Below, piece by piece: positions 8,101 to 54,047 of a DNA stretch of 64,000 nt (positions are counted from its first letter, which is position 1; each line of letters begins with the position of its first letter). The notes under the pieces are model-generated. The model saw nothing but the letters and a program-made list of their open reading frames with translations, ran no database searches and was not told the origin of the DNA. Both the position numbers and the translations under genes were made by a program. The stretch is from Amanita rubescens (Eukaryota; Basidiomycota; Agaricomycetes; Agaricales; Amanitaceae). The stretch lies in assembly GCA_015039365.1 (NCBI GenBank), contig WION01000002.1:1240001-1304000 (forward strand), written 5' to 3'.

Positions 8101-9167
8101 GCACGGCTCAGTGAGCTTCGCAAGTCTACAACACCAACTCCTGCCGTTTCAACCGCCTCTCCAACTACAATTGCTCCACCTCCGATTGGTTATCATGCTG
8201 GTCTTGGTATGGGTTCTTCTACCCTTCCTATTGGCCAGCACCTGCAAAATCCACAATTGCAGAGTCAATACCCTATACTATCCACGCCTTCTCCACAGCC
8301 GCAGCTTCAGACACAACCACTAAATGGCCCAAGGGGACCGTTTGCCCCTGTCCCTGCGAATCAAAGTTTGCTGCAGCCCCTCGTTCCAACTCGAACAGGC
8401 TTTACTGGGTTCATTCCGACTCGCCCTGTCAGCGTCAACGCCCAAAGTTCACTAGCCTTGCCCTCACTTCAACAACCGTTCCTTTCACAGCAACCTACCG
8501 GGATTCCGAACCAACTCCAATTTCATCCGCAACCGCACCTTTCACAGCAGCCTACCGGGATTCCAAACCAGCTCCAGCTTCACCTACAGCCGCTCCTTCC
8601 ACAACAGCCTACCGGGATTCCAAACCAAGCTCTATTGCCACAAGCGACAGGAGTGCCATTTAATAGTTTCACATCTTCCCCCTTTCAAAGCAGCGGTAAC
8701 TTTGGTCCTAACCCTGCGCCAATGCAGCCGCGTGAGTGAGACTTTTTCTGTGCGCGACTTATTGCTGACGGTAAAGAAAACCATAGAATTTACTGGATTT
8801 AGTCCCAGTGTGGGACCGTTAGCACCTAATAATTTCTCTGTGCCACCTGTACCCCCACTTCCGATTTTACCTAGCTCTAATAGTAATAATACTTCGCCGG
8901 CCAATGTGTTCGCCCAGATGAAGTCGGGGACTTTCGCAAATGAAGATCATTCTCAACCTCAGCCCGCAGGTTCGTTGGCACATTATAACTCTTTGAGACA
9001 CTTTTTGAACAGCAGATCGCAGACAAATATAGTGCATTGCGACCAGCCCGTAAGCACTCTAGCTACTTCCATCAGGCTGATATTGATTCCAATTTACAGC
9101 TATAATTTCCCAGTCAACTGGGTGGACTCAGCCGTATCAGAACCAATTCATGGGATACCCTCGGTAG
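5178..9167 (+). CDS. SLA1: SLA1-like actin cytoskeleton and endocytosis adaptor
   Basis: SLA1 links cargo sorting to actin assembly at cortical endocytic sites. The start ATGAGCGACCAC opens the first SH3 domain (LKASYDYEPQSEDELAI). A second SH3 (VLYDYEASAPGELTV) starts near 5510, and a third (ALYDFTADGEDELTV) at about 6385-6535. A Lys/Glu/Arg-rich coil at about 6640-6870 follows. Next come SHD1 (VRTWHDRSGQFRVEAAYLG, about 7050-7210) and the SAM-like SHD2 (IDWFEFFLSAGCDVDDC, about 7337-7530). The Pro/Gln-rich tail holds several near-perfect QQPTGIPNQ repeats (about 8490-8630), the target-type repeats of Sla1. After the family motif SPANVFAQMKSGTF, the end was built with three small introns to a TAG at 9165-9167. 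Length is about 1150 residues, typical. Confidence 0.92.
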
Positions 9168-9224
9168 ATTTTCGTAGCTCCTTTGACGATGGTACAATGA
9201 ATAAAGATAATGCTAGTATGAAAA

Positions 9225-12200
9225 TTACGAAGAACGCTCTGTGATGCCCTGTGCATATCCTACTCGAACAAAGTAAGTCTGAAGCGGCTGTCGCACCTCC
9301 GATGCAACGTCGCGCGATAGCAAGTCTGTTACCAATGGATATATTGCTGGTAAATAAGTGGTGAACTAGGCCAGGGATCTAATTAGCACGAAATGACGTG
9401 TATTTGGGAAGTCACTCACAGCCTTCTCATCGAAACGGCAGAAGCCATCCAATATTTCAGCAACCACAGGCGTCCATGCCAGTACGTTTTTTGCTTGCGT
9501 ATCGGGCCTTAGCTTGTTGTAATCCTGCAAAACACCTAGTCCTAGCCTGCAGAGTGGTTAGATGAGTTGATTTTTATAACCGTCGAGAGAACACGAACGG
9601 CATGAGACGTTCTGCAATCTGGGGTCGAGCAGCTTGGTGTTCAAGTCTGTTGTCGTAGTACATCCGCAACAGAACATGGACGAGAGTGGCAGCGCTACTG
9701 GATTCCTGTTTCAACAAATTCGGCAGGTGTTTCATGAAACCTGACATAACCTTAGCGGAGGTTGTAAAGTTCAAGAAGGATGTACGTACCAACTTTCCAA
9801 AGCCCTGTTCGTAATTCTTTGTCTTCGTTAAACATGCGCGCGAACTGATAGCTATGATCCAGGACGCCCATGAGGCGTAATAATTGCTCCGGTGGAATCG
9901 TGCGATAGACTCCGTCGTTTCTTAGAAGATCATTTGTAGTCTCAATGAGCAGTAGTTGAAGGACGCATTTCACAATTATTTGCTTGAAAATGCGACGACG
10001 GTCGCTCAATGACGTTTGTACACCGTTCTTCGCCTGTTCACCATTTGATAGCAAGGGGGCAGGAAGTATTGCGGAGCCATTTGTGTCTGTTGACAATTTC
10101 AGTCAAACGCATATATTACCGCAATCTTTTTAATTTATACCTGCTGTCTCGTTTGTTTCTGCGACATTTCCATCTATCTCTACACGAAGACTTTCATCAA
10201 AAAGTTGATGTGGTGTAGTTGTCCTGAATAACTTGACGAAAGTTGTCGCAATTCTCTCCCAGCGCGCAGGACTTAATTTTTTGACATTACTCTCCAACAG
10301 CTGTTGCAAGCAGGATGTTCCGATTCTTGCGAGTGTATCGTTTTCTGGATAAAAACGTTGCGAAGGTTTGTCCGACGTGCATTTATGTTTAATAAACTCA
10401 CCTTGACAAATGCATACACAGAGCAGGTCCAACAATCCATCAAGGAATCGTTCCAGAATCTCAAAGTAATATGTATACAGATCTATAAGGTTCCTCAATG
10501 CTTGTATCATCGTCGTCGATAGCCAGACGCTCATATCTTCTTGCGTACTAAACCGTGATAGGTCTTGACTGGATTTGAGGACGGCAAATATTGGAAAGAG
10601 TAGTTCTTGGCAGACTGTGTCCCAAAAACCGACGGAATATGTTGACCCATATTTCTTGAGAGTTGTAAACAAGGAATCCAGAGCGCTGTAGTCCGGCACG
10701 AAAATAAGACATTATTTGATACAATGATTTTCGCCACCTACAGTCTTCGTACTTCAAGATCTTCGCCGTTCATTATGATATCATAAAAACCAAAATGCAC
10801 CGGGAACCAATATCGAATCATAGAATCATCAATTGTTTGCTGCGGACCCGTGAACGAACATTCAGGACATTGGAGCATTACCGGAATCACTCCGCGCAAC
10901 ATGGCAATAGCTAGCAGACTGATCTTCTGATACTTGCTAACTTTGCAAAACTCTGTGATGCAGACAGTGAGATCTGCAAAAGAGCCGTATCGGACTATAG
11001 AAACAAAATGATCTCGGTTGAGTCTTGTGACGATCTCAAAGGCGGAGTTTGCAATCTTTTCTATGGGACGCATGAATATCGAATGTGCAGATGTAGCCGT
11101 TTAGCATACCTGTTAGGACCTTAGAAGCAGCCGAAAAGACACCGAACATGGTTCGCCAGCCTGATCGCATATTTTGTACTCTTGCCTGAATCATTTGTTG
11201 CAAGCACTGCAAAACCTGCACAGACGTCAATAAAAGCATCAAGCGTATGACATCTAACTTACCATATCACGGACTTCGGGGTTGTGATTGTGGATCATGG
11301 TGTATTCAAAAGGCTTTAAGAAATCTTTTTGGAACTTGAAATGCGGTAACTCCTCTTTTTCAAGGAAGCGCATCGCCAGTTGCCGAAGAGAGTCCAAAGC
11401 GAAGAAACAAACATGTGGATTACTATGGCAGCAAACCTTCTGGATTTCAACAAGAATGGTCACTTGGAAGACATGAACTCTTACCTGATTGAAATGCTCT
11501 CCTAGAATATCCCACAAATTCGACCACTCCAGACGAATACGTGACATATTATAATATGAGATTTCCACCAGTTTTTGAAGACTGAATACCCGAGGATGCT
11601 GTGATAGCCCAGACGATTGAATCTCTTCCCATGATACATCACACAAAGCGCGAACGAAATCCACTATTGCAATCTATTGTGTTGCATTGTTAATGACAAT
11701 TTAGCTTTCCAAAATCCCGACTTACTCCAGACAAATAATGGCTTAAAGAAAACACCATGTCGGCCGCGACAGTGATGTGTGTAGAACGACTTTCGTTAGC
11801 TAACTCTTCCGTAGGAACTTTCCGAGTGCGTCTGTTTGAAAAAGTTGTTATAAACTCTTGAAAAAGATAAGAACAATCATACCCTTTTTTCCCAGACTCT
11901 GGCACATCTACCCCACTACTAATAAGCTGCATATGCTCCAATTGACTGACACAAGTTAAAACTTCGCGCCATGATCCTTTGAGATGATTACCTTCAGTGA
12001 CGGCAACATCTAGGAGAGCTTTAATGGCTTCCATATTTTTAGTTCTCATCTCCCCTAGATTGTTCAAGAACGTGAACTTTCCCAGCGTCGTCACAAAAGC
12101 GTCTCGCTGAAGCTCAAGCTCAAAAAAGCAAACGATGCGAATTGCACTTTTGAACCCGTCCAAGCAGAGCTCAACAATCTCAAGATCATTTGTTTGTTGC

Positions 12201-15200
12201 AGGGGCCCCGACAATCCAGCCAAAAACGGAATCCAAGCAACCTCAAACATGGGCCGAACGTGGACGAAATGAGAGGCACTGAAAAATTGCTCGCCGCTCT
12301 TTGAGCCTTTACGCTGAGAGCGCATCATGGTTTTGAACAGAGCCTGGAGTATTTAAGCATAATGTATCGGACATTTGGAAGGACGAACAAACCTCTGTCT
12401 TATTAGCCATACCATTTGACTGCAGAGCATACGCTTCCTTTTGGAGATCTCTTCCCACATTTGCGATGGCCCCGGTAAGTCCAGGGCCAGAAGCCAGAGC
12501 TAGGCCAAGATCAGCCTGGTCCTGCATTCGGATCTCGTTGTTGACAATATCATCGTATATATCAGACAGGAACTGTTCGGGAAGGTCTGCATTGTCGTTT
12601 ATGCCCTTGTTATTCTTAATAAAATCTGCCTTAGTCATGCGTTTCTTTACTCGCGGATTATGAGCATCCGTGTTGAGCATGATAGCCGAGTACGCCAGAA
12701 CATAAGCGGCGTCTAAATAAGGCAAAAAGTGGTCAACCATGAGAGTCGCCGTAAGGTAAAATACGAACCAGCATTGGCGAATGGTGTTTTGGGATTTCCA
12801 GCAATATATCGCTCGGCAAACTTGAGCATGAATCTATCAATTTTTTGCGCCTCTCCTGGTAATCTGAATGGCTGCAGAAATGTTCTCAGGGCGTCAACGA
12901 AAGGGTGATCTTTGAAATCCAGCATGTTCACGAATGAATGCATTGTAGCAATATTATCTTCATCACTAATAATTGTCAGGACTGTGTCGAAGCTGGACAT
13001 GATGATTAGCCTTCTTACCCGTCGCCCAAATATTCTCCTATCATGGTCTTGCTTAGACCATCCGTAGTGAGAAGAAACTTTGCCACGTCCTCCGGCGCCT
13101 TGCTTGGGATGAAACCGGTGTCGATCAAGAAGTTTATCCCCTATATGAGTTCAGCTTTAGAAGGCAGATATCCTTCTGAGGACGTACACGCTTCGGTTTG
13201 AAGTTGAATTTCTTGATACCCTCCAAGAACGTGGTTTTTTTCTGTTTTGCACTCTCGAACTTGGTAGGGTCATCAATTGTGTCGGGGGTCGGTTGACGCA
13301 AGATTTCTACACTGCCGCCTAGCGATAGTTTATCGTACGATATATCTGGGGTAACTGGTTCACGCCGGTAATCATCTCCAGAGAGTGATTTCGCTGAAAC
13401 CGGTGGCTGGCTATCTTCATTAGTTCGATCAGGAGCAATGCCCCATGCAACCAAAGACCGTAACACAGTTACAAGACACTCCAATCCTTGTCTTCGATAC
13501 TGGCTCTCAGATTGTCCCAAAGCAGAAGTATCCATGTTTCCGGGAACTGATAACGCCGCAGCAGATAAAGGAATTGGACCGCCCGCGGTTTGGCCTTTGG
13601 ATGTAGTACTAGATGGTTGATTGGGAGGTTCGGCGGCTTTTTGTTGAGACGCTGCTATGGGTGCCGTCCCGACTTTCGAAATGATGTTCATGAGGCTGAT
13701 ATAGCAGTTAATTCGTAGACGGAGGGAAAGCGAACATCAATCCTACTGTTCGTAGATATTGTCCACAGCTTCCCCGTCACAGTCATAATTAAGGTATATT
13801 TCTACTAAAGCTTGGGGATCTTGACACAGTCTGGAGAACATGCCGAGGATGATGGCCTTCTGCTTGAGTGTTGAGGTTTTCATTTCGAGGATGGGAATAA
13901 AGATTTCGTGGAGAAGTACTTCCGTCTCTTTCTAAACAAAAAAGTGAATAAAGATCAATAACTGCAAGAATGCAGAAGACCTTGAGCTTCGTTCGCATGC
14001 CAGAAAGGACACGCCAGAATATTTCAACGCTGATCTCGAACACTTGAGGCACAGGGCTAACAGCATTGCGGCTTAAGCATAGGCAAAGATACTGGTTAAT
14101 AGCTTGAATGAAAGTAGTGGCTTCATTGGACGAGCTCGAATATATGATGGCGGTTGGATCAACGAAAAGTGGCATGTGAGAGTTCAAAACTGTCAGAACA
14201 AGATACAGCGACAACAGCTTGGAACGCATGGCGTGTGATTTGGGATCTCTTTCACTACGAAAATGCATTATACAAATGTTCATATCGAACGGCAGCGACA
14301 AACCTTTCCGTGTTCAACGGCTTCATCGTTAGCTTGCAGAGCGAACGGAACACCAGGAATGCATCTTTGACAAACATGTCACGAAGGGTCATAAAGCGGC
14401 TACTTTGGTCATGTTCTGATATGGCATCAATGTTGTTGCTGGAAATATAAGTACATCAGCTTTGCCATTCGATAATCGAGTGCGGCACGACTCACAGGTT
14501 AATTTGAGATTGATGTGGGTCATCATTAGGGGCGGGATCCTGGTCCGGCACCGCATCCTCCGCGGGACGTTGCAGCGGCAAGGAGGCTAACGAAGCGTTA
14601 CTTTTCGACCTCTCTGGGGCACCAACATCAATATTTGCAAGTGTCCTGGCATCCTCGGACGGAATGGAAAACGATGTGCGACTTGCAGCTATTGCATCAG
14701 GACTGAAGATGTCGGGAGTCGCTGATATCAACGGCGTTTTTGCGTCTCTCCGACACCGCGTGAAAACATGATGAACCATCTGCGTTAAGCCACCTTGCGC
14801 TACCATTTGATTGACGGGATCGTTGCTAAGTAAAAAGACATTGTATACGGTCCTGACCGCTTTTAGCAAAGATGAGTGGTGAACAAGAATTGTCGGGGAT
14901 AAGACAAGTGATAGAAGTGCCTTGACTACCTGGAGCGACACTGCCTCTGGCGTATTTTCACTATGGCATGCAGTTATTGTATGGGCAACCAAGTCTACGA
15001 GAGAGGGTTGTGGTATATGAGTTTGCGAGGCATCGGCATTGGAGTCAAGAGCAGAGGGATGAGGAGAAGGTGGCGGAGATGGGATATGTGATAACGGGTG
15101 CTCGGGTTCCGCAAAGAACGAGTAAGAGATAAGTTTGGAAATGCAATCGAGGCTCGCTGTCATTAATTTTTCATTTCTGGTCTCGCAAGCAAGGCGTAAT

Positions 15201-15862
15201 GGCTCAAATATTTCGCGAGGAGATTCACCCCCCTGGCTAGACCGAATTAGATCTAAGGCGCGCTGTGCGCTGTCGCGGAGGGGGTTAGATCGCTTGGCTT
15301 CCCGCGATGCCACTATGGTTTCCAATGCAGAGCTGATGAGAACAATAGAAACATTATGACCCCGTGATAAGGTAAGAGACCTTTTGTGTGTTTTGGGTGA
15401 GGGAGTCTGAGAACGAACAGGTTCCGTATTCCTGTGTTGCGCGTCCTGGGACCGCCCAACCGACGACGAAGTCGAAGTACGCGGCTCATGAGATTCCGGT
15501 TCGCTCTGAGGAGTAGGATGTTCCACAGATGGCGCAGAGGACAAAGGCTCGTCTTCGTGACAAGGAGAAGCTACTACTTGCGCATTTTCTGCACCGTCCG
15601 CCGGGGTTACTACTTGCTCGTCTGTCTCTGGGTCATCAGAGACAGAAATATGCCCAGGGTGGCTTTGGGTAGCTCGCTGATCTGGCTGTCTAGCTTCGTC
15701 AGCATCGGTCGCTTCCGTTACAACGTCTATGACAGCAGACGGTGGTATGGCTATCGGAGACTGGTCAGCGGTATGGAAGTGACTTGACCGTGGGCTTTGG
15801 GAGTCCTGCGACGGAGGCGAGGATGGTAGTGGAATGGCTGAAGCATCCGTGACCTCGTACAT
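9225..15862 (-). CDS. SEC7: SEC7/BIG-type ARF guanine-nucleotide exchange factor
   Basis: A large (about 1800-1900 residues) Golgi exchange factor that activates ARF GTPases for vesicle budding. The Sec7 domain (about 12500-13140) contains the catalytic glutamate motif [12 protein letters not shown] and the second motif [16 protein letters not shown]-terminal of it is a DCB/HUS-type helical region. C-terminal HDS domains extend to the family ending [11 protein letters not shown], with TAA at 9225-9227. I chose the ATG at 15862 ([13 protein letters not shown]). The frame stays open further upstream but has only a GTG there. The first about 130 residues are Ser/Pro/Glu-rich and probably disordered. 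The gene has many short introns. It is divergent from DHS (114 bp between ATGs) and convergent with SLA1 (57 bp between stops). Confidence 0.92.
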
Positions 15863-15976
15863 GATGGCACTGGGCGCAGGAGAGCCAGTGTTCTCAACCG
15901 TGGACTTTGCGTAGTCGGCGGCGCCACGTGCTCGATATATCACTTGCTATTTCAGGAAATGCATTATTTTATCACC

Positions 15977-17297
15977 ATGACCGATGCACCAAAGGGCGCA
16001 TCAGCCGCTGTACTGCAGCCTTCGGAACCAGTGCCAGACAATGCTGTCTCGGTACAGGGTCCAAACTTTGACAACTCTTTATCTCTGCAGCAGTTTCTTG
16101 CTTCCTATGAGCGCGTCGGGTTTCAAGCAACCAGCCTTGGCAAAGCGATCGACATTGTCAATCGCATGGTAGGCCTCGTCGAATTAACAGTAATTCTTTT
16201 CTTACTATCAAATTTTAGAGAAAATGGCGGTTATCCGACGAACCGATAACGGAAGACGAATCAGAGCAATACACTTCGCCTTCCGTCCGTGCAGAGACGC
16301 GTTGCAATATCTTCCTCGGCTATACTTCAAACCTCATATCGTCTGGGCTTCGAGAAATAATACTATATCTCGTAAAGCATAAGCATGTTGCTGCAATAGT
16401 TACAACTGCGGGTGGCATCGAAGAAGATTTCATAAAGTGCCTCGGGAAAACATACCTTGCTGATTTTAATCTGGACGGTGCAGACCTACGAAGACGCGGA
16501 ATGAATCGGATAGGAAATCTGATTGTGCCAAACGACAATTACTGCAAGTTCGAAGACTGGCTTACTCCTATTTTGGATCAAATGCTTGTTGAACAAAAGG
16601 CGACCGGAAATGTCTGGACGCCTAGTTCTTTCATTCGACGGCTCGGGAAAGAAATAGATAATGAAGAATCTGTATATTACTGGGCATATAAAGTAACAAG
16701 ATGCACTGCATCTTGGTCCATGCTGATCTATCTTGAGTTTTAGAACGATATTCCCGTCTTCTGTCCTGCGCTCACCGACGGTTCCATCGGAGACATGATA
16801 TATTTTCATTCCTTCCGCTCTCCTGGTTTGATCATCGATATCGTACAAGACATTCGATCGCTGAATGAGCTAGCGAGGAAATCACGCAAGGCTGGGATGA
16901 TTATCTTAGGTGGGGGTGTCGCCAAGCACCAAATAGCCAATGCCATGCTGATTGTACGTAATTCATTTTCCCGTTCGCTTATCACTGACATGGCACACAG
17001 CGCAATGGAGCCGATTTCTCTGTCTACATAGTGCGTTTCCTGTTGCGTATCTACTTTGCGAAGATCACATTTTTCATTAGAACACTGGGCAAGAGTTCGA
17101 TGGGTCAGATTCGGGCGCTCGACCTGATGAAGCTGTATCCTGGGGAAAGATCCGAGCAGGGGCCGAATCCATAAAGGTAATCTTTATAACATTAAACCCA
17201 CTGCGATGAATTGAGTAAACATGATCAAAAGGTCTTTGCTGATGCGACGCTAGTCTTCCCACTTATAGTAGCGGCGACGTTCGCACAGGGGAATTAG
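15977..17297 (+). CDS. DYS1: Deoxyhypusine synthase
   Basis: It transfers an aminobutyl group from spermidine to one lysine of eIF5A, the first step of hypusine formation. The start [12 protein letters not shown] is followed by [16 protein letters not shown]. The core includes [29 protein letters not shown] and [10 protein letters not shown]. The C-terminal region [20 protein letters not shown] carries the catalytic lysine that forms the enzyme intermediate (Lys329 in human numbering). The last exon encodes [17 protein letters not shown] and a TAG at 17295-17297. Five short introns are visible. Oddity: the usual GGGVVKHHIANA motif reads [12 protein letters not shown], so the second histidine is glutamine. 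The catalytic lysine and the first histidine are present, so I expect activity. Length about 360 residues, normal. Confidence 0.93.
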
Positions 17298-17428
17298 TAG
17301 CTTTGTTTCAAGTGAGCATACCACCAAAATGATATTGGTGTTCATATCCAGTAGATACATCATGTGGTGCAGAGTAAGTTCCATATAGCTTTCGCCCCTC
17401 AATCTATGGTTGATCGATGATCAGCAGA

Positions 17429-18384
17429 CTAGTAAACTAATATAACTGACGACTCGTGCTCACCCTGTATTTCACGCGACCATAAGATGAGGTCGTCTTT
17501 CAACAACTGCAAAATCGTCAAAGAATCTCGTATAAGTTGGTCCAGGCCATTTTCATAAGTTGGCAAACAAGAGACCGCATCGTCAAATGCACTCTTTGCA
17601 AGATGGCAAGCTCTTTCGGGGCTGCTTTTCACGTCTAAAACCGGCAGACTATGTATCTAACGTTTCCATGCAATTGAACGGCTTACCATGATAAAAGACG
17701 GAAAAATTCAACGCAAGACCTAATCTTGTTGGGTGAATAGGATCAAGCGTTGCCAATGCATGTTTGTATGCCAACTTGTATGCAGTAAGCGATAAATCGC
17801 CATACCGCTCTCTGTCATGTTCGTTCGCAAACTCAGCCATATATCGATAATAATCGCCTTTCCTGGAAGTGGGTGATTGTTACTCCGAGAAGCACATTTT
17901 GAGTGGAGCTAACCTACATTTTAGAGTAGAACACGCATTCTTCACCGGATCTGGCGGCAGGCTGAAGCCGTTTTTCGAGCAATGTTACGATATCCTTACA
18001 CGCATCGGTCAGTTCCCGCTCTATTTTCTGGCGCTGTCCGCGTATGAGTTCCAACTGTCGTGTAGTCAATGGCGATCGATCTGACTTCTTAGGATCGTTC
18101 AGTCGTGATGACTGTGCCCTTTTATCCATGAGGTCCATGTTTCTCCAACTATTTCGGAGATTGTTTGTTATGTTTTTATAAGCAACGGAGAGCAAATTGC
18201 GCTCCTCAATCGTGAGTTGTGCGCCGTAATTTTCAACGATGGTTTTGATGTACTTCACCACATCTGGATCGACGGCGTCAGACTCCGTCTTTGGTTGAAC
18301 ATAATGCAAACCTTGGTATCTTTCTGCCTCGTTTGCCACGTCTGCCAGTACGAGGCACTCTGCGCGGGGAGGTCTTTTGTGCAT
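17429..18384 (-). CDS. Divergent 14-3-3 family protein
   Basis: 14-3-3 proteins bind phosphoserine/phosphothreonine motifs as dimers. Family blocks are clear: [25 protein letters not shown], a YYRYMAEF block, [31 protein letters not shown] and [15 protein letters not shown]. The phosphopeptide pocket (human zeta Lys49, Arg56, Arg127, Tyr128) appears kept. The segments between are far from canonical 14-3-3: a [10 protein letters not shown] insertion in helix 2 and a basic [15 protein letters not shown] stretch after helix 3. This looks like a fast-evolving paralog rather than the main cellular copy. The start at 18384 is conservative. An ATG at about 18439 with a 53-bp intron (ending TGTAG just before 18384) would add three residues. 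The C-terminal tail after WSREI is unusual and ends at 17429. Confidence 0.85.
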
Positions 18385-18439
18385 CTACATTCATCATCAA
18401 TCGATGTGGTCACATGTCAGGACGTACGTACAGGTGCCA

Positions 18440-19360
18440 TTGCTAGTGAAGCTTCAAGTTGTAAGCGATGCACGAGGACGACCATAAAGTACTTTTCTAA
18501 TGCCAATAGCTGGGCAGAGGGGACGGGTAATGCATGGTTTAAATGCGGCCTGATTGATACATCTAGTACTGTACAGGGTGTTTACACGTTTTCACGTTCC
18601 CATAACTGTGGAAAGGTAGCATTAATGTGCACCGTGAACTCGGACTCCCCAGAGTTGCGTCATTGATCACGCCCGCATGAAGGAAACTTCCAAGGTTGAG
18701 CTCATGTGATACTCGATAGAATTAGCACGAGTTCCTCGCATGTTTTCAGAACGCCCACAAAGTTGTAGTCTTGTTCGACTCCCAAGATTCGGTTCAATCA
18801 GACTTCTGACTGTGCCATTCACGTGAAATACTCCCTGAAGCTTGGACAAAAGTGCCCCTTCTACTGTTCGAGATGCAACCCTTAAATTTAGTTGATCGTT
18901 TCCAGAAGGTCCAATACAGTCTCCTCCTGAGGTGCCCATACCTTAACTTCGGAACCAGGCGATAATGTGAAATGTGTTCTAGATGTGAAGTTTATTGTTA
19001 GCTATGACGCTCGTGAAGTAAACCTGTACGACTAACCCCAATGGATATTCAGGTAATTATTTTTCAGCTATCCCTGAGAAATAGGCTCGACTGGCATCTG
19101 ATTTCCTCCGAGGCCGGCGGTCAGGCCTTTCACGACCGCGAAGATGACTGTTGACGCACCATATGGATGAGATTCATTGGATCATGATGTCACATATAGA
19201 CAGACAGCACTATCCTGAAAGGTGTCTTCGGCCAGAAAAACAACTCCAAGCTTACAGACTGTTCCATTCGATTAACACACTAAATAAAAGCTCTCAGTTT
19301 CAAATCGAGGTGAAAGTGAAGTGTATGCGCATACGTTCCCACGCGACTCCTCCCACCATC
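18440..19360. other. Spacer without a confident gene
   Basis: No open frame here has recognisable homology or a convincing exon structure. A minus-strand frame of about 90 codons (18667-18939) has neither family motifs nor a good start context. The stretch probably holds the divergent promoters of the 14-3-3 gene and the CRN gene. Confidence 0.5.
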
Positions 19361-44783: not shown

Positions 44784-45257
44784 ATGCTTGCTCTCCTCCG
44801 ACTTGGAGGAAACCGGCTTCATTCACCCACTCTAGTTCTGCGTCGTACATCCATCACAGCCCCTCGTTTCATTCCTTCGCGTCTTGATGCAATCGAGGAC
44901 ATTGAAGATTACCGACCCGGCGGTCATCACCCCATATCTGTTGGCGACACCTTTGACCATGGACGTTTCAGAGTCCTTCATAAACTCGGATTTGGAGGCT
45001 CTTCTACTGTTTGGCTGGCGCGCGACCAGCGGGAAGACGGAGACCTCGGTAGAATTGTCACCCTTAAGGATGGGCTCCGATTTTTCCTCATCCAAGGCCC
45101 CGAGCGAGATCCCCGAACTGGCTATTTCCCAAAAACTTAGAGCGTCCCTCCGTCCTTCCGACTCTGTCGACTTCCAGACTGTCGATCACCATTTCTTCGT
45201 ACAAGGTCCGAACGGCTCCCATCTATTTCTCATATTCCCTCTTGCTGGCCCCAGTAT
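44784..45257 (+). pseudogene. SRPK-like kinase, 5' part, frameshifted and split by a transposon
   Basis: The N-lobe of an SR-protein-kinase-like enzyme of the type expanded in Agaricomycetes. Visible are EDIEDYRPGGHHPISVGD, the glycine loop LHKLGFGGSSTVWLARD and GRIVTLK, with the ATP-binding lysine. Right after VTLK (about 45066-45070) the sequence continues in another frame: MGSDFSSSKAPSEIPE, then VDHHFFVQGPNGSHLFLI and FPLAGPSI. No intron fits, so about two bases are missing or one is extra. The reading frame is then cut at 45257 by the left end of the 7.2-kb element. The remainder resumes at 52453. The kinase cannot be made as a whole. Confidence 0.8.
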
Positions 45258-45308
45258 CATCAGGAAAAACGTCGTTGGCCATTTAGACCCAATTATCTCT
45301 ACTTATGT
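45258..45308 (+). repeat. Left terminal inverted repeat
   Basis: 51 bp, paired with 52400-52450. Only two adjacent positions differ (TT here, CC in the other arm read inverted). Confidence 0.92.
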
Positions 45309-45362
45309 CTAATCTGACTAATGATATCTAGTCTTGTCTAGCTACGCAAAGTTTGAACTAAG

Positions 45363-48300
45363 TTATATTAGAACTGCTGAGTTGAAAAGGATATAGGTAT
45401 CTGACACGTTGAATGGATTAACAAGGAAAGAGTCCGTTTCCTCCAACACCGTATCACTACTTAAGTCACGAGATATAGCATGTCCAACCAACGGGAAAAG
45501 GTGTATACTTTGGGAGATTTTTGTAATGCAGATGATGCTTGCCACCCTTGAAGCGCCTTGACGCGCACGTGAGACCTTATACATGCCATGATTTGGTTCT
45601 GGATGTGCCCGAAATTCTGTAAACCACTCGACATATGCAAGGTATAAGGGCGCCAGGGTAGGACCGAATAATAGCTTGGCAGCTGTATCTTGAATGGTGA
45701 ATACAACACGAACTTGGGCTACACGATAGGCTAGAAGTGCAGAGTTAAGACGCTAGCCTGTAGTAGTAATAGTAGTAAGACGATGTACGTACCATGCGGC
45801 ACTGTATTTCCTTCAGCCTCATTTATACGGACTAAGACGGTGTCGAATCGCGCGGGTATTGCCTGACCTCGCTTGTTCTTCCTGTTTGGCTGAACATGGA
45901 TAGCATCGATAATGCTATTGTCGTCCTCGGGAGTAAACTTGATGCGATGATATGCTGAAACGTAAACGAAAGGCATGCTTATGTTGCAGGCCTCCCGTTC
46001 TACCTGCGTTCGGCTCAACTGTGGGTTCCGCCATTGTGCCACAAAGCGCGCCATTGCATCCCTGAAGTATGTAGCACCATAGCTTGAAGTCAGCGCATCA
46101 AGTGAGACACCACGTGCTGATGGACGGCGCGTCATTTTTAAACGCCGTTTTCTTTGTACTAGCCGGGGTTGAGGCGCTGGCGTGGTATGGGTCGTCCTGC
46201 CATTTGCATTGTGCCACTGAATGAAGTTTGCATGTCGATGTACTTTGTCGTGTCTTTCTAACCATGTTGTCATCTGGGGTAGCTCATCTTTCCGGTTTGT
46301 GGTACGATAGGGACCCTTCGCAAGCTCGCAGTGTAATCTCTCCGTATGTTGTGAGTTATAATTGTCTGTGGTTCCAAAGAGTTGGATGGATGACGTATAA
46401 TGTCGGCACATATGAAGTTTAGGTATATTGAATTGCTCGCGAATCCCGAGTTCAACAAAAATGGTCTTGTTGTCATGAAATTCTTGTAGAGAAGTGGCGA
46501 GCGCTCGCAAGGACCCACTACTATGAATGGGAAACTGGGCTAGATAGAGGAAGTCCATTATTGCACGAACGGCACGTATTAGACGAGATGGGTCAAGGTT
46601 CCCTGGTAGGCGCATGTCGACAACAATACCCATCAGGATACGACACATCTGGTCATGCTCTTTTCCCGTTAACCGAGATAGGCCGGAAATTCCACTCTTA
46701 AATATGCGAATGTGATGATTTGGGGCAACGCGCTGAAAGCGTGCATCAAGCTCGGCTGCACCATATGCAGCCTTAAGCCATGTTATTAGATGCTTGACAA
46801 GTCCTTGGTGGAGTTGATGTAGGACATCGGGCGTAATAGACTGGAAGATATTGACAAGCGGGAGATGTTGCCAGAATGGGTGGTGAAGGGGCTTGATCTT
46901 CTCTGCCTCGCAGGCGGTGAGAAACTGACAAGGGTCGCTATCCGCCTTTTCGAATGCGTTGAGGACCGCAACAATGTTCCGGTTTTGAAGGGGAATGTCG
47001 ATTGAACCGAGCTCCTTGGAATCTATCATACACTTGGGGCATTCACCCTTCTTCACTCCTGCAACTAGAAGCTGTTCGGGGTAGTCACCTATATAAATGG
47101 CGAGTATAGGGTGGACACGTCGCAATACACCGTCGCCACTCCTCATTATCTTTCCTCGGAGCCCAAGCTTCTCAAGTGGTGACAGAATATGCTGTAAGCA
47201 GGAATGAAATAGGTTCGCCAGGCAACGGCGACGTGAAGCTGAATTTGAGATATGTTTGAGCTTGCTGGTTGGCAAATATGCTAAGAGAGCTTGGCCACGC
47301 TGAGAGGGCTTTCGACGAATGTGTTTTGGGAGGTTGCCAATAGTAAGATAAAACGGATAGGCAGATTTGCTGCCAAATTGGGTAACTTGCGTTTGGTCTG
47401 TGGAGACGATGAGGGGGATGATTGTAGCACCACGTTTATGTTGCTCAAGTTTAATCTATTATGTTCTTTAGTAACTGATAATGTTTGTTGCGTTATTGCC
47501 TACCTGGGCTTCCCACCACCACTCTCCTGTATGTAGCTCATGGTAAATGCGTTGTGATTTATCGCGTGAAGTATAGTGACGCTCTGGACTAAATACAAGG
47601 TGGCTTGCGAACTCGGCATCGCCATAAAGTGCCTTGATACACTCCACAACATTGCGCGAGTACAATGTCACCGACTCGCCTAAGATTGAGACTTCGTCTT
47701 GTTGAAATTTTGGGCGACTGGGTAATTGAGTATCAATAATCTTGTTTAGTTCTCGACTGTTCTTGTAAGAGAGTCCCAGGTCTTCAGCTATCTATGAATG
47801 ATATTAGACTTGAGACACACAATATTAAACCTAACTGACCTCATTGAGAAGCTCGTCTAATGCCGATACGGCTATCTTATGGATCTTCGCCCAACGTGCT
47901 ATCACCCAGTTGGCTTTGGATGTAAAAGGATAGTAAATGTCGCTACCACTTGCAGGCTGGGACAAACGTTGTTGATAGATGTCGTAATCCCTATTAAATG
48001 GCTCTTGACTCTGTATTGGTGAACCAGCCGAGCTATAAATAAAATTTTCGATGTATACGTCGCCTCCATGATGGGTGTCCGCTGCGCCTGGGGAAGTTTC
48101 ATGACTGTGTTCCTGGGAAGTAGCGGCTTCTGGTTGGGGGTATTGCTCCGTAACATCAACATGGGTACTGTTTTGCGCTACTTCACCCTCGGCGGTATCA
48201 TCCTCGGGATCCTCCTCCTCCTCCGAATCTTCGCATCCATCACTCCCTGCAATTTTTAGGCGAGCAAGTCAGTGATCATATCTAATTAATGCTATAAGCT

Positions 48301-48547
48301 TACCTTCAGCATGCGGAAATCCACGGTCTTCATCAGGCCAATCCAGATCACCATCCTCGTAATTGCCAAAAAAGTCCCCTTCAAACTGAGGTACATCATT
48401 TGTGTTATCTTCTTCCTCTTCCTCCTGCTCAACCTCTTTCAGGTGGCTGTAGTGTGCTGCCAAACAGAGTAAATTTTTGCTCCGTTGAACATGCAAGCTA
48501 AACCCCGACGGCTTGAAATTTCGATAACAACCTGCACAATACACCAT
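45363..48547 (-). CDS. Plavaka-family transposase
   Basis: Exons join without a break from MVYCAGCYRNFKPSGFSLH (a C-x2-C..H zinc-finger-like start) to a stop at 45363. Landmarks in order: an acidic Glu/Asp-rich region; SKANWVIARWAKIHKIAV; AEDLGLSYKNSRELNKII; TLYSRNVVECIKALYGD and LHTGEWWWEAQ; LTIGNLPKHIRRKPSQRG; YPEQLLVAGVKKGECPKC; TPDVLHQLHQGLVKH; GLSRLTGKEHDQM; GIREQFNIPKLH; NSQHTERLHCELAKGPYRTTNRKD. After an intron at about 45681-45791, the C-terminal exon holds AYVEWFTEF and SDTVLEETDSFLVNPF. These are the conserved blocks of the Plavaka (CACTA-superfamily) proteins of basidiomycetes. About 950 residues. I do not assign catalytic acidic residues by eye. Confidence 0.9.
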
Positions 48548-48634
48548 GGAACTGGCGGCGACGGGTCAGGGGATTCGACAACAACCTGCACAATACACCA
48601 CGGAACTGGCGGCGACGGGTCAGGGGATGATGGG
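48527..48634. repeat. 54-bp tandem duplication over the transposase start
   Basis: Two adjacent copies of a 54-bp unit (from 48527 and from 48581) each contain the start-codon region CCRTGGTGTATTGTGCAGG (minus strand). The proximal copy has ATG, the distal one GTG at the same place. 54 bp is 18 codons, so the frame is kept between copies. Confidence 0.85.
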
Positions 48635-49324
48635 TGATTACACGTAAGACCAAGGGTAGCTGAAACCAACCCCCAAAACTGACTGCGGTGAAAAAATGAA
48701 GAAAACCCTGTAAGAATGTAGATTAGAATCGAATAGCAACGCTTAGAACTTTGATTTAGACTTACCTTATTTAATCGATGCAAAAAAGGAATAGACTCGG
48801 GCTTGATGCATATCATCTCATCGGGGATCAGGACAAGATTGGCATCTGGAGTTATATGTCTGAGATCCACCTCAGCTGAGGTGGCCTATGATTGCGGTTG
48901 AAACGGTCTTCATCCACAAGACCATACCCAACTAGATGCCACCAAATAAGAGGCAGATATATTTAAATTTTACAGAAATCTGACCTGCTTCAAGCGAAAT
49001 CTTCAGGCAGCCAATAAAAGGGGTAACGAGTCGCAGTACCTGAACTATCAGCTTGCCCTGGCACATAAGCATCAGCGGTCAGGCTAAAAGAGGTCGAGCG
49101 AAGGAGTTGATCACCTTATCCGGAAACCCCGCCAGTTGCTAACGAAAAATTACGGGGTGATGCATGGCCACGCAATGGCTAGCGGTGGGGCCTGGTGTTG
49201 TCGGCCGAACGGGGGCATTTGTGCCACATAACTGCCGAAATAGGCAGAGGATGCCATATAAAAGGCACGCTCTGAATACAATTGAGCACACATACCCTAC
49301 TCCTGAGCTCGACTCTGACCCACC
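48635..49324. other. Central promoter region of the transposon
   Basis: No gene. It lies between the two divergent element genes. A TATAAAAG at 49257-49264 is 61 bp upstream of the DUF6532-like ATG and is a good core-promoter candidate. Confidence 0.5.
49257..49264 (+). promoter_or_regulatory. Putative TATA box of the DUF6532-like gene
   Basis: TATAAAAG in correct orientation about 60 bp before the ATG. Sequence match only. Confidence 0.45.
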
Positions 49325-52083
49325 ATGGCTAAACGCGTATCCAAAAAAAGCAAGAGCACAGTTGCTGTCACCGATAATCGCCCAGACGTTGAATCTGCCG
49401 GACCGGCAGGTGATACTACTAGCGGTCATGGGCACTCCACCACCCAAGGGAGTGCTCCAGTGATTCCTGCTGAAAAACGGGCTAACAGCCCATCTGCCGC
49501 TCAAGGTTAGTCACGATTTTTGTGATTAAGTCCAAAAAATGACTTACAATTCGGGTTGTGGTGCAGCGGTAAAGCAGGCACGCAAAAAGGCAGCAGCTGA
49601 ACAAGCTGATCAAGAGCTAATAACCGAGGGTAAGTGACTTGAAGTATAGTTCTAAGAGCATATTGTTGCTCACCTCTATCGTCGTGAAGGTCCTCGTAGG
49701 GCGAAGACAACGGCCCTTGCTAATGCTGGTGAGTCACCGGAAAGAAGCTCAGGCGCAATTACAATCTCTTACCTTTAGTGTGGTTGCAAGCGGATGGAAG
49801 TGGCACCAGGCCACGCAAGAGGCCAGCTCCTGCCACAGCGGCAACTGTGAGTAAGAAGGCGAAAGGCAGTGCGTTGATTTCTCACAAGTCTCACTTCTCA
49901 CGATCACTGACGATCACAACTTGTTTTACTTCACACGGTTCAAATTCAACGTTCAACACCCTTTGCCCACTGCTGACTCCCTCTTCAACTTTCAATTCTC
50001 TATGTTGCTCCACTCGTTAACGGTCCTCAGATAAAAGTAAGTCATTTATTTCTGTTACCTTTAATACTGACAAACTTCGAAGAAGAGACTCCACAGCGCG
50101 CCCAAGGTCAGACCACTGCGCAGCGTGGTCCTGTGGCCCCGCCAGCACCGCGTAAGCCCAAGGCTCGAAGAGTTACCAAGAATACCCGGGCCACTACTGG
50201 CAGTCATGGTTCGTTACGCTAGTACTATCAATCGGTTCTGTTACTGATCTAGATATTTTCTCACTTGTTCAAAGATGATGTGACGGTCAGTCTACCTCCC
50301 ATCCCTCCCAAGACCCGGAAAACTCGCACCAGTGGCAGAGAAGGTTAGTATAAACTTTTCTTGCGTCCTTGATGTTCAACTCACCACTGGGTGTGATGCA
50401 GTTACTAAACAAATTACGGTCCGTCACTCTGAAGTTGAGGATGATGTAGATGGTTCCTGCACCGAGGAAGATACGGAGCTGGCGGATGATGAGTCCAATG
50501 GCGACCAAGATGAATCAGCTGATGAGGCCTTGGAAGAGCTGAAGAAAAAACCAACGCGCTTAATGAACGCGCTTGTGAACGAAGTAAGTGAACTTTTTTC
50601 CCAGTCAGATGAGCTTACATGTACTATACACTTAGCGTCCTACGTTGAATCCATCCACTTCTGATGGCAAACGCAAGGCTAGTGTCATCGTCCGCAATCA
50701 ACCCATTGAGATTTCGGAGACTGAGAGCGACGAAGAGAGTTCGCCGACTCTCCAGGTCCAAGGTGACCATAAACCTAAACCCAAAGGTTTGTTGACCCTT
50801 CTCGAGCTAAAGCGAGGACACTTATGCGGTTGTGCCGATATAACAGAAGCCAACATAATGCTTGCTAGTGAAAGTCAAGAGGACGACAACAGTGAGTCAT
50901 AGACTCATAGCCCGCAGCTACTCCTCATGGTTGCAACAACACAGATTCCTTTCTTGAGCTCTCTTCATCTGTAACAGAAGAGGATAGTGGCTTTGAGTCA
51001 GTAGAATGGCCGGCATTCACGCTTATCAGATACAACGAGACTGGGAAGATAAATTTAACCAAACAACAGATTGAGCTTAAACTGGTCCTTCGTCGAGCGA
51101 TAACAATTGTTGAAGGTCAAATCATTTTTGAAAATGCATTCGCAGATCTTGGCAGGCGTGCTGTTTGGAAACGGAAGGCCCTTCTCGAGGCAACTTCTTA
51201 TGTGATGAACATGCCAAACACGGCAGCAAAGCGGAAGTATGTCATAATCAAGAATCGGCTTAAAGAAGACTCGGAATATGTAAGCGAACTTTCAAAAGTG
51301 GTTCGTCGCCCTTTCCTTTCCAACTCTATGTGAACTAATATGGAGTTTGTCAAAGCTTGAGGTGCGTATATCAGGCCTGCGGAAAAACTTTAAACAGGCA
51401 GCGAGCATGGCTATTCTATCTGAGTTTGGATTGAAGAAGGGATGTGGGGATGTGGTGCGCGCTCTCGTACGCGATATGCAATTCATTTACCCAACCACGC
51501 CAAATGTAAGTGAAGGTCACGAGAATGGCATGATGCTGATACCATGGTGATGATATAGGGAGGGCCACTCGTCGGCAGTCCATACCAAAACCAAGCCATT
51601 ATTTCGGTCATCAAGTATGAACTTTTTTGCGTGAAGAGCATTGTTAAACGATACCCGAAACAATTTGCAAACAAAAAAGAAGTAACGCCACCGGTTCTTG
51701 CATTTGCGGCCACGGCGGTAAGGATTCCCGACAATGTATGTTTGGTACTAACTCCAATGATCCTGTATGACAGATTCGTGCAGCGCTGGATGAATGGGTT
51801 TCAGGCGAAAGAAGGCCAGCCGTTTTCTCGGCTGATTCATATACGGACATTTATAAGGATCACCTCGACTTCATGAAGCACCGGATTGAAAAAGAAAACC
51901 TGGTGGGTTATGCGGCAATGTTACATCGAGTATACCGTTTCGCGTCGTAAGCTCTATGCTACCTTTGTCGTCTACAGGTACTCATAACTTTGCAGTGACG
52001 GTGTGGCTTCTGCTCTGAACCATTCCGCATTGTTCAATGCCTCGGCAATGGTTGTTGAGATAGATGATTCCGAAGAGCCTTAA
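49325..52083 (+). CDS. DUF6532-like transposon accessory protein
   Basis: Starts CACCATGGCTAAACG (MAKRVSKKSKS). The N-terminal half is spread over many tiny exons (about 30-180 bp) separated by 50-100-bp introns, many in phase 1. It encodes a basic, AT-hook-like, low-complexity region (KQARKKAAAEQ, RPRKRPAPATAAT, KPKARRVTKN), then an acidic stretch (EEDTELADDESNGD). The C-terminal domain includes WPAFTLIRYNETG, LRRAITIVEGQIIFENAF, KRYPKQFANKKEVTPPVLAF and, after splicing, AIRAALDEWVSGE. It looks like DUF6532, a domain common in Agaricomycetes. It ends DDSEEP with TAA at 52081-52083. The gene lies wholly inside the TIRs, so it belongs to the element. A DNA-binding or transposition-accessory role, like TNPA of plant CACTA elements, is my inference. 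Exact exon joins in 49510-50340 are uncertain. Confidence 0.75.
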
Positions 52084-52399
52084 GTTGGGCCTTGATTGCT
52101 TCCTGCATTTTTAACCTCCACTCCGTCATATACCTGACTCGTATTATGCTCTTACTATGTATCTCCCTGATTTATATGCTAGTATGTTACTTGGATACCC
52201 ACTTTAATGATAATATATATAGTTTTTTCGTTGTAACCCGGGAAAATTAAGGAGGATGAGCCAATGTAAGTCATCTAATCCTTTCTTTTATGACTAAAGC
52301 AGACATAATCACGACAAAGTAGACATAACTTATACGAAAATAATGGGGGGGTGATCTTATCTAATCCTGGGATAACTAGATCAGATTACGTCTATACAA
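52084..52399. other. Right subterminal region of the transposon
   Basis: AT-rich, no gene. It contains repeated AGACATAA motifs (about 52302, 52322), the complement of TTATGTCT next to the left TIR. These may be transposase-binding sites. Confidence 0.4.
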
Positions 52400-52450
52400 A
52401 CATAAGTAGAGATAATTGGGTCTAGGTGGCCAACGACGTTTTTCCTGATG
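52400..52450 (-). repeat. Right terminal inverted repeat
   Basis: Inverted partner of 45258-45308, 49 of 51 identical. Confidence 0.92.
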
Positions 52451-52452
52451 AT

Positions 52453-53451
52453 CTATGCCATGTCTGACTCGCCTGGGCGAGCTGCCGGCAGTCGGCGACT
52501 ACGTGCAGACTTGGCTAGGAAGGTCGCGAAACAAACAGCGATGACGATACACCACATGCACTGCGCAGGCGTCGTTCATGGAGGTAAGCAGTCTTCTGAA
52601 CGATGTGCGTTGTCGACGAATGATTCCATCTAGACCTGACCACATCGAACATCTTGTTTCGTCTGTCGCCTCACGTCATCAAATGGTCGGACGCCGAAGT
52701 TCACGCCCATTTGGGCGACCCCAAGACAGAGAATGTCAGAACCCGCGACAGACAACCGTCCGGCCCTCATGCACCAGCCACGCTCGTCGCACCCATCGAG
52801 AACTCCAAGATGTCGGACGCAATGCTTCTTCAAGAAAGCATTATCGTCAGTGACTTTGGCCAGTCCTACATTGTCGCCTCTCCACCATCGTCCTACGAGC
52901 CAGGTACGGTGCTGAATTACCAGTCGCCGGAGGCACGGTTTGAGGGGCGCGTGGGCCTCGAGGCGGACATCTGGGCGCTCGGATGCGCAATCTTTGAAAT
53001 CCGCGCGGGCTTTGCCCTCTTCGAATCGTTCTTGGGAAGTGACGTCGACATTCTCAGGCAGACGGTTCAGACGCTAGGGCGACTACCCGACTCCTGGTGG
53101 GCTGCTTTCAAACAGCGTGAGCTATGGTTCGAAGGGGACGGGCAGCCGAAGAGCGAACAGGACCAAGAACGCGCTGGCGTGCTTCTGAAAGCTTACAGAA
53201 GCTCCATTAGGGCGAAGTTGCTCGACATAGGCAAACAGGACGATCCGCCGTCTGAAGACGAAGGTCCGATGATCGAACAGCCCGGGGTGCAACTGCATGA
53301 GGAGGAAGTTGGACTGTTGGAGGATCTTTTGGAGAAGATGTTGAAGTATCTCCCGGAGGAGAGGATTCGTATACAGGATGTCATTCTCACAGGATACAGA
53401 GAATCACAACTGTATCGCCCACCTCGCTGCTTTCTTTGCGTGTTGGACTGA
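52453..53451 (+). pseudogene. SRPK-like kinase, 3' part
   Basis: Continues the kinase right after the transposon: YAMSDSPGRAAGSRRL, then DLARKVAKQTAMTIHHMHCAGVVHG. A 50-bp intron (52585-52633) completes the catalytic loop HGDLTTSNILFRLSP. The loop is HGD rather than HRD, usual for these fungal SRPK-like proteins. Then come the DFG motif (IIVSDFGQSY), the APE-like QSPEARF and DIWALGCAIFEI. The C-lobe continues to LLEKMLKYLPEERIRIQDVI. After that the family's usual HPWF-type ending is not seen; the frame runs another 20 residues or so to a TGA at 53449-53451. Apart from the transposon this part has no visible damage. Confidence 0.8.
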
Positions 53452-54047
53452 GTAAATTGACGCGGCTGGAACTTGAGTTGTGTCTAGGCGCGTCATCTGG
53501 CATGCTGGGTCGAATGGTGCATTCACGACGCTTTCTACCAGGTAAACACGGGGTAGAACGACTGAAATATTTTTCGGTTACATACCAAGAGCTCTACTGG
53601 GCAGATAAGGGTTTGATTAACAAGGCAGTTTTAGATGGACTTCAAGTAGAATTTTTGGATAGGGTGGTTGCCATTTCACGTAGAGAACCGCCATCACCAT
53701 TCTTGAACTTCTCAATGTTCTACGAGTATTAACATACACTGTCCACATGTCATGCTAGGATTACTACTAATAGGACGATTGGTTGAGAGCGCCGAAGTGG
53801 CGATATATAACTTCTCTCAGCTTCAAATTTTGGCCTGTTGGCACATCTGCATGCGCAGAGATATTGCTGCGAAACTTATTTTCCCCGACCATGGCACACT
53901 GATACCCATCCCCCTTGAGAGCCTAAAATCCCTGATTCAGATAGACAGGGTCAAGTACAGAGAAATTTAGCTGGAATAGAAATAAACTGAGCTCGACGGT
54001 AGAGATGCCGCATTGCCGAGTAATCTAAACCAGGTCTTGCTTTATCA
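53452..54047. other. Degenerate or unassigned interval
   Basis: Short open frames at 53436-53732 and 53752-53970 give no recognisable protein. Their density suggests decayed coding sequence, possibly old repeat remnants, but I cannot name it. Confidence 0.3.

What the first reader, a model, noticed from the sequence alone, without database searches (positions are those of the whole stretch)
45256..52452. Two-gene Plavaka element with a DUF6532-like partner inside the TIRs
Precise ends (51-bp TIRs, AT duplication, host frame restored on removal) show that the many-exon DUF6532-like gene is part of the transposon, not a neighbour. The product has a basic AT-hook-like N-terminus and a compact C-terminal domain, a plausible TNPA-like accessory. 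If general, the large DUF6532 family of mushrooms would be mainly transposon accessory or domesticated transposon proteins.
Basis: partly seen in the sequence, partly recalled or inferred. Interest (0 to 1): 0.75.

Follow-up and report, generated by a model that had tools for sequence, protein, structure and literature searches.

The report
Mushroom transposon carries a partner gene
A jumping gene in a mushroom genome moves together with a second gene of unknown function, and most members of that gene family found in this genome sit inside elements of the same kind, which gives the family a likely job as a transposon helper.

Summary
A 7,193-bp Plavaka transposon (45258-52450; 51-bp TIRs; AT duplication) carries a transposase and a divergent gene for a DUF6532 protein (129.9 bits). 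A homologous empty site exists.

The link is general in this genome (Amanita rubescens, inferred). Of 14 DUF6532 loci, 11 lie between PlavakaB-type ends with a transposase in the same divergent order; 10 of 11 have identical 2-bp duplications. One more has a single such end; two are unbounded. Near-identical elements at unrelated sites show that the gene moves with the element. Six subfamilies (transposases 51-67% identical) share the arrangement, and DUF6532 is under purifying selection.

Not upheld: an AT-hook, and enriched subterminal motifs in the window's family. The role is inferred: a nuclear, TNPA-like accessory is likeliest. Whether DUF6532 genes of other mushrooms are transposon-borne was not testable. 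My paper searches found no report linking the two.

The parts
45256..45257 (.). left copy of the AT target-site duplication
   Evidence: single AT in the homologous empty site C371
45258..45308 (+). left terminal inverted repeat, CATCAGGAAAAACG... (PlavakaB-type terminus)
45460..45733 (-). probable C-terminal exon region of the transposase (LAYVEWFTEFR... resembles LAYVEWFTTFR... of a minus-strand ORF at C80:9851-10222); splice sites not modelled
   Evidence: ORF; similar peptide; inference
45734..47455 (-). main exon of the Plavaka transposase (574-codon open frame)
   Evidence: PF18759 285 bits; 53-89% identical to the transposases of the ten other two-ended elements
47471..47791 (-). transposase exon, start of the Plavaka domain
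   Evidence: PF18759 87.5 bits
47834..48565 (-). N-terminal transposase exons, acidic stretch and CxxC..H zinc-finger-like start (finger recalled, no Pfam match); boundaries approximate
   Evidence: ORFs; the finger piece has tblastn matches in all ten other two-ended elements
48566..49324 (.). region between the two divergent genes; a 54-bp tandem duplication at 48520-48627 overlaps its edge
49325..52083 (+). DUF6532 gene, 15-exon model, 622 aa. Exons: 49325-49505, 49567-49629, 49690-49728, 49779-49865, 50031-50036, 50086-50208, 50275-50343, 50402-50583, 50636-50786, 50847-50891, 50945-51279, 51356-51505, 51559-51735, 51774-51946, 51996-52083. The fourth/fifth exon junction is unsure (non-GT donor, 6-nt exon). 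The database model P0001 (643 aa) differs at four places; at the 51735/51774 junction the other subfamilies fit P0001 better than my model
   Evidence: open in C112, C495 and C78
49690..49865 (+). exons coding the GPRRAKxxALxNA peptide and the VWxx... basic, bipartite-NLS-like patch
50945..52083 (+). region coding the DUF6532 domain
   Evidence: PF20149 on P0001 residues 386-592; genome search
52400..52450 (-). right terminal inverted repeat
52451..52452 (.). right copy of the AT target-site duplication

Best explanation
This is a two-gene DNA transposon of the PlavakaB type, presumably cut-and-paste. The transposase gene and the DUF6532 gene are read divergently from a shared central region towards the two ends. 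SHOWN: both genes lie between the TIRs, move as one unit, have stayed together while the transposases diverged to 51-67% identity, and are both under purifying selection. INFERRED: the DUF6532 protein is a nuclear partner of the transposase. A conserved basic (bipartite-NLS-like) N-terminus, an acidic linker and a conserved C-terminal domain would bring it to the element's DNA or chromatin and help the transposase form or regulate the excision complex, much as TNPA serves TNPD in the related En/Spm (CACTA) elements. My probabilities: integral and functional transposon gene 0.97; transposition accessory of the TNPA kind 0.55.
For: 11 two-ended elements with both genes in the same order, 10 of 11 with identical 2-bp duplications. 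Near-identical elements at unrelated sites, with alignments ending at the TIRs. Homologous empty sites for the two elements tested. Among C112, C495 and C78 exon lengths differ only by multiples of three and splice sites are kept apart from the unsure fourth/fifth junction. dN/dS 0.28-0.30 for the whole DUF6532 gene and 0.17-0.22 for its C-terminal part, against 0.15-0.17 for the transposase. DUF6532 and transposase identities correlate (r 0.965 over 55 pairs, Mantel 0 of 10,000). A VW[LKM].. peptide followed by a basic patch occurs upstream of the domain in all 11 elements. Plavaka belongs with En/Spm (PMC12730594, passages), whose TNPA is a multi-exon DNA-binding partner that is less conserved than the transposase (PMC2613891, passages); here DUF6532 is 28-56% identical between subfamilies against 51-67% for the transposase.
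Against: No DNA-binding domain matched in Pfam and no relative in the PDB by sequence. The structure model is too poor to read. Repeated subterminal words, expected as TNPA targets, do not exceed interior controls in the window's family (controls as strong: C112 92, C495 102, C78 92 of 200) nor clearly in C148 (32), C67 (45), C91 (21), C557 (18); only C109 stands out (4 of 200). No sequence relation to TNPA was tested. Between six subfamily representatives alone the correlation is lower (r 0.69, 15 pairs), and within the window's trio the two gene trees pair the copies differently. Two transposase relics (C80, C439) have no recognisable DUF6532 nearby.
Confidence: 0.6

Rival explanations
1. 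DUF6532 is an anti-silencing factor like VANC of Arabidopsis VANDAL elements: it binds the element's non-coding DNA and removes or blocks repressive chromatin or DNA methylation, rather than helping excision itself.
For: Several fungal DNA transposon lineages, some PlavakaB families among them, carry TET/JBP dioxygenases (PMC12730594, passages). VANC is TE-encoded, and its targets vary considerably between related TEs (PMC5735166, abstract). SIM-like motifs (recalled consensus) upstream of the domain in 7 of 12 sequences scanned would suit a chromatin partner.
Against: No enzyme domain matched; no methylation data; no specific test here. That all 11 two-ended elements keep the gene fits a core role at least as well.
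Confidence: 0.22
2. DUF6532 is a captured passenger or self-limiting regulator (copy-number repressor) not needed for movement.
For: Biochemical role unproven; transposons do capture genes (general knowledge).
Against: Retention across six diverged subfamilies in one position and orientation with purifying selection is unusual for a passenger.
Confidence: 0.12
3. The gene is a host neighbour or cargo of one copy caught between TIRs by chance.
Against: 11 two-ended copies, near-identical elements at unrelated sites, homologous empty sites.
Confidence: 0.01

Closest known systems
PlavakaB DNA transposons of Agaricomycotina (PMC12730594)
   Same: Plavaka transposase; termini CATCA..TGATG; 2-bp duplications
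   Different: In the passages and section I saw Plavaka families carry a transposase with or without a TET/JBP dioxygenase; no DUF family is named in the main text. Its supplement with the family sequences was not readable here
En/Spm (CACTA) tnpA-tnpD two-protein elements (PMC2613891, passages)
   Same: Related transposase clade; a multi-exon partner less conserved than the transposase; non-autonomous derivatives that keep the ends
   Different: Here the partner is a separate, divergently transcribed gene with its own domain, not an alternative splice product; subterminal repeat arrays were not shown in the window's family
VANDAL elements with VANC (PMC5735166, abstract)
   Same: Transposon encodes a partner protein without a recognised enzyme domain (inference)
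   Different: Different transposase superfamily (recalled: Mutator-like); anti-silencing not tested here
Harbinger/Nuwa elements with a Myb/SANT partner (PMC12730594, passage)
   Same: Two-gene transposon with a DNA-binding helper
   Different: DUF6532 protein had no Myb/SANT match
Pfam DUF6532 (PF20149)
   Same: Domain match, 129.9 bits over 192 of 194 positions
   Different: Function unknown; one Ganoderma paper lists it beside PF18759 among additional domains of two species without linking them (PMC8955403, passage)

Membership tests
PlavakaB transposon | Plavaka transposase domain (PF18759) | tested here: met
   285 and 87.5 bits on two exons; 370.8 bits read through in the genome search
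PlavakaB transposon | termini 5'-CATCA..TGATG-3' (PMC12730594) | tested here: met
   CATCAGG...CCTGATG in the window element; among the relatives C109 has CATCGGG at one end and C92 at both
PlavakaB transposon | 2- or 3-bp target duplication | tested here: met
   AT/AT here; 10 of 11 two-ended elements with identical 2 bp; C284 is the exception (GT/GA)
PlavakaB transposon | position in the PlavakaB branch of the published transposase tree | not tested
   the published tree and sequences are in supplements that could not be read
DUF6532 (PF20149) | match over the curated cut-off | tested here: met
   129.9 bits against 24
TNPA-like accessory (function) | encoded inside the element and maintained by selection | tested here: met
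TNPA-like accessory (function) | repeated subterminal binding motifs | tested here: inconclusive
   not above interior control in C112, C495, C78; 18-45 of 200 controls as strong in C148, C67, C91, C557; 4 of 200 in C109
TNPA-like accessory (function) | binds element ends and is needed for excision | not testable with these tools
   needs bench work
AT-hook protein | RGRP core or Pfam AT_hook match | tested here: not met
   none in P0001

The most novel reading that the evidence does not exclude
DUF6532, an uncharacterised family of mushroom proteins, is at root the accessory protein of PlavakaB transposons, so most DUF6532 genes annotated as host genes are transposon genes or recent descendants of them, and some were domesticated as nuclear regulators.
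Probability: 0.45. Interest if true: 0.75.

Novelty: new variant of a known kind. Interest (0 to 1): 0.6.

Why it matters
It gives a Pfam family of unknown function a concrete context and a testable role, extends the transposase-plus-helper plan of En/Spm to the fungal Plavaka branch, and warns that DUF6532 counts used to compare mushroom genomes may be counting transposons.

Full report
OBSERVATION. The window holds a sharply delimited element. Inverted repeats of 53 nt (96% complementary) lie at 45256-45308 and 52400-52452. Their outermost AT is the target duplication, so the element is 45258-52450; it starts CATCAGGAAAAACG and ends CGTTTTTCCTGATG. On its minus strand is a Plavaka transposase (PF18759; 285 and 87.5 bits on two exons). 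On its plus strand is a gene, 15 exons in my model, whose product matches DUF6532 (129.9 bits on the annotated protein P0001, cut-off 24). P0001 is recorded as a hypothetical protein of Amanita rubescens on a contig of the same length as the window's contig, so I take the genome to be that species.

EMPTY SITES. A DNA query made of the two flanks joined with one AT matches C371:2711-3313 over 600 of 600 bases at 95%, and the alignment shows a single AT at the junction. C371 also matches the left flank over about 1.8 kb at 96.7% and the right flank over 934 bases at 96.5%, with further pieces beyond. C371 may be an allele or a paralogue of the host gene. The window's host copy and C371 differ by further small indels, so 'host frame restored' is true at the junction but says nothing of the whole gene. 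The joined flanks of a second element, C557, match C746 and C321 at 99% over query bases 3-247, across its junction near 151; that site lies in a repeat (46 matches), so these are homologous repeats without the element rather than alleles. Empty sites were sought for these two elements only.

OTHER COPIES. A search of the whole genome with the DUF6532 profile gave 25 exon matches (32 of 32 candidates scored), which I group into 14 loci. I read at least part of the surroundings of all 14. Eleven lie between two PlavakaB-type ends with a transposase in the same divergent arrangement: C112:1285258-1292450 (AT/AT; this element), C495:173282-181288 (TC/TC), C78:48006-56845 (CG/CG), C148:48628-56869 (TT/TT), C268:287386-297437 (TT/TT), C67:80600-88045 (AA/AA), C284:415-7860 (GT/GA), C91:79854-86710 (TG/TG), C557:83317-90138 (AT/AT), C109:65998-72930 (TC/TC) and C92:708-20167 (CA/CA). 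C92 is about 12 kb longer than the window's element and its stretch 6001-14000 was not read, so it is the least secure of the eleven. Ten of 11 duplications are identical; with a 1 in 16 chance each, that is about 1e-11 by my arithmetic. The twelfth locus, C4, has one such end and a DUF6532 gene with a stop codon, and aligns to the right part of C67. The last two, C599 and C651, have Plavaka sequence within 7 kb but no bounding ends in what I read.

CO-MOBILITY. C67 and C284 are 99.8% identical over 7,446 bp, exactly from end to end, with unrelated flanks. C148 and C268 match at 98.7-100% in three main blocks, the outer ones reaching the TIR ends; a repeat array in the middle is arranged differently and C268 has a nested insertion. 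C91 and C557 match at 85% from end to end. These are separate insertions of one unit that includes the DUF6532 gene.

LINKAGE. The 146 Plavaka matches form 64 loci; about 1% of the genome lies within 6 kb of one. Twelve of 14 DUF6532 loci are within 7 kb of one, binomial p about 1e-21. Collapsed to eight groups (my grouping by subfamily; seven near), p is about 3e-13. C92, inside one pair of ends but 16 kb apart, and C4 count as not near here.

CONVERSE. Ranked by identity to the window's transposase (76 of 178 candidates scored), 13 loci, the window's included, align at 51% or more over at least 200 residues. Eleven are the two-ended elements above. C80 has no recognisable DUF6532 or end in 9001-19000, and C439 is a broken relic without one in 363001-370000. 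Three further fragments of about 98 residues at 51% were not examined. The other loci listed are at 45% or less, and of these only C599 and C651 have a DUF6532 match within 7 kb. A short copy, C228:40219-42391 (CC/CC), shares only terminal pieces with the window element and has neither gene, as expected of a non-autonomous derivative; nine other two-ended candidates were not read.

SELECTION. In C112, C495 and C78 the DUF6532 frame is open (622, 623 and 613 codons) under one exon model. Exon lengths differ only by multiples of three, and splice sites are kept except at the unsure fourth/fifth exon junction. Nei-Gojobori dN/dS is 0.28-0.30 for the whole gene, 0.17-0.22 for the C-terminal part and 0.35-0.38 for the N-terminal part. 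For C91/C557 the domain gives 0.22 and for C67/C4 0.17; the transposase main exon gives 0.17 (C112/C495) and 0.15 (C91/C557). C148/C268 and C67/C284 have too few differences to use, and C148/C92 is saturated at silent sites. The exon models outside the window's own family come from a home-made spliced aligner and may be off at some junctions; my own model of the window gene differs from the database model P0001 at four places.

CO-EVOLUTION. Over the 11 elements, pairwise identities of DUF6532 and transposase correlate at r 0.965 (55 pairs; 0 of 10,000 permutations as high). Among one representative of each of six subfamilies r is 0.69 (15 pairs). DUF6532 is 28-56% identical between subfamilies, the transposase 51-67%. 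Both trees group C148/C268, C67/C284 and the window's trio; C91 and C557 stand together at an unresolved fork of the DUF6532 tree and as a supported pair in the transposase tree. Within the trio the trees differ (C112 with C495 for DUF6532, 82/43; C495 with C78 for the transposase, 92/90), and several deeper forks are weak.

THE PROTEIN. Residues 1-195 of P0001 carry a net charge of +24, residues 195-356 -26, and residues 357-643 +11. Sense-strand ORFs upstream of the domain share short peptides across subfamilies (12 sequences scanned): VW[LKM] followed by a basic patch that by eye resembles a bipartite NLS, in 11 of 12; GPR[RH]AKxxALx[NK]A in 8 of 12; SVTExDS in 7 of 12; a SIM-like hydrophobic-acidic motif in 7 of 12. 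C4, truncated, has none of the four. NLS and SIM consensus forms are recalled, and the patterns were written after inspection. No AT-hook was found.

MECHANISM. Published work places Plavaka with En/Spm (CACTA) in one clade sharing CA..TG ends in most cases and 2-5 bp duplications, and describes PlavakaB by CATCA..TGATG ends and 2-3 bp duplications (PMC12730594, passages). In En/Spm, a transposase (TNPD) works with a multi-exon DNA-binding protein (TNPA) that recognises subterminal repeats; such partners share little similarity while the transposases are conserved (PMC2613891, passages). The DUF6532 gene fits that place by position, persistence, exon-rich structure and faster change. I could not show its binding sites: repeated words in the ends are no stronger than in interior controls for C112 (92 of 200 controls as strong), C495 (102) and C78 (92), not clearly stronger in C148 (32), C67 (45), C91 (21) and C557 (18), and stronger only in C109 (4). 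A VANC-like anti-silencing role (PMC5735166, abstract) remains open.

NOVELTY. In the paper library, DUF6532 and PF20149 occur in one paper, a Ganoderma comparison that lists both PF18759 and PF20149 among additional domains without linking them. Searches for Plavaka and related names brought up no report of a DUF6532 partner in what I read; the PlavakaB paper names no DUF family in its main text. Supplements and Repbase could not be read, so a second ORF may have been recorded there without a name. I file this as a new variant of a known kind: a PlavakaB transposon with a previously unassigned accessory gene.

LIMITS. One genome only. Locus counts are lower bounds. Function is inferred.

Noticed in passing
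48520-48627: A 54-bp tandem duplication (96% identical) at the 5' edge of the transposase gene, near the divergent promoter region.
   Followed up: no
44836-45257 and 52453-53460: The element sits in an exon of a host gene that reads like a protein kinase (my reading); a homologous copy without the element at C371 is 95-97% identical and the two differ by small frame-shifting indels, so one or both may be decaying.
   Followed up: partly
G000 C268:287890-289639: A nested insertion inside the C268 element with inverted repeats of about 43 bp (86%) and an apparent 9-bp duplication, absent from its near-identical partner C148.
   Followed up: no
G000 C148 about 51900-53700 and C268 about 292300-294300: An internal repeat array with a spacing of about 180 bp between the two genes, arranged differently in the two elements.
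   Followed up: no
G000 C599:85001-87000, minus strand: The best-scoring DUF6532 locus is preceded by an RS-rich repeat stretch unlike the transposon copies, lies between two Plavaka pieces and is not bounded by ends I could find; a candidate for a diverged or domesticated copy.
   Followed up: partly
45734-47455, C-terminal part: A sub-threshold match to DUF6830 (17.2 bits, cut-off 24.3) at the C-terminal side of the transposase; perhaps that family is also a transposase tail.
   Followed up: no
G000 C228:40219-42391 and candidates on C650, C568, C168, C71, C255, C673 (two), C557, C190: Relatives sharing the element's ends; C228 has a CC duplication and no gene. The candidate C673:139444-147238 is 7.8 kb long yet matched neither profile.
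   Followed up: partly
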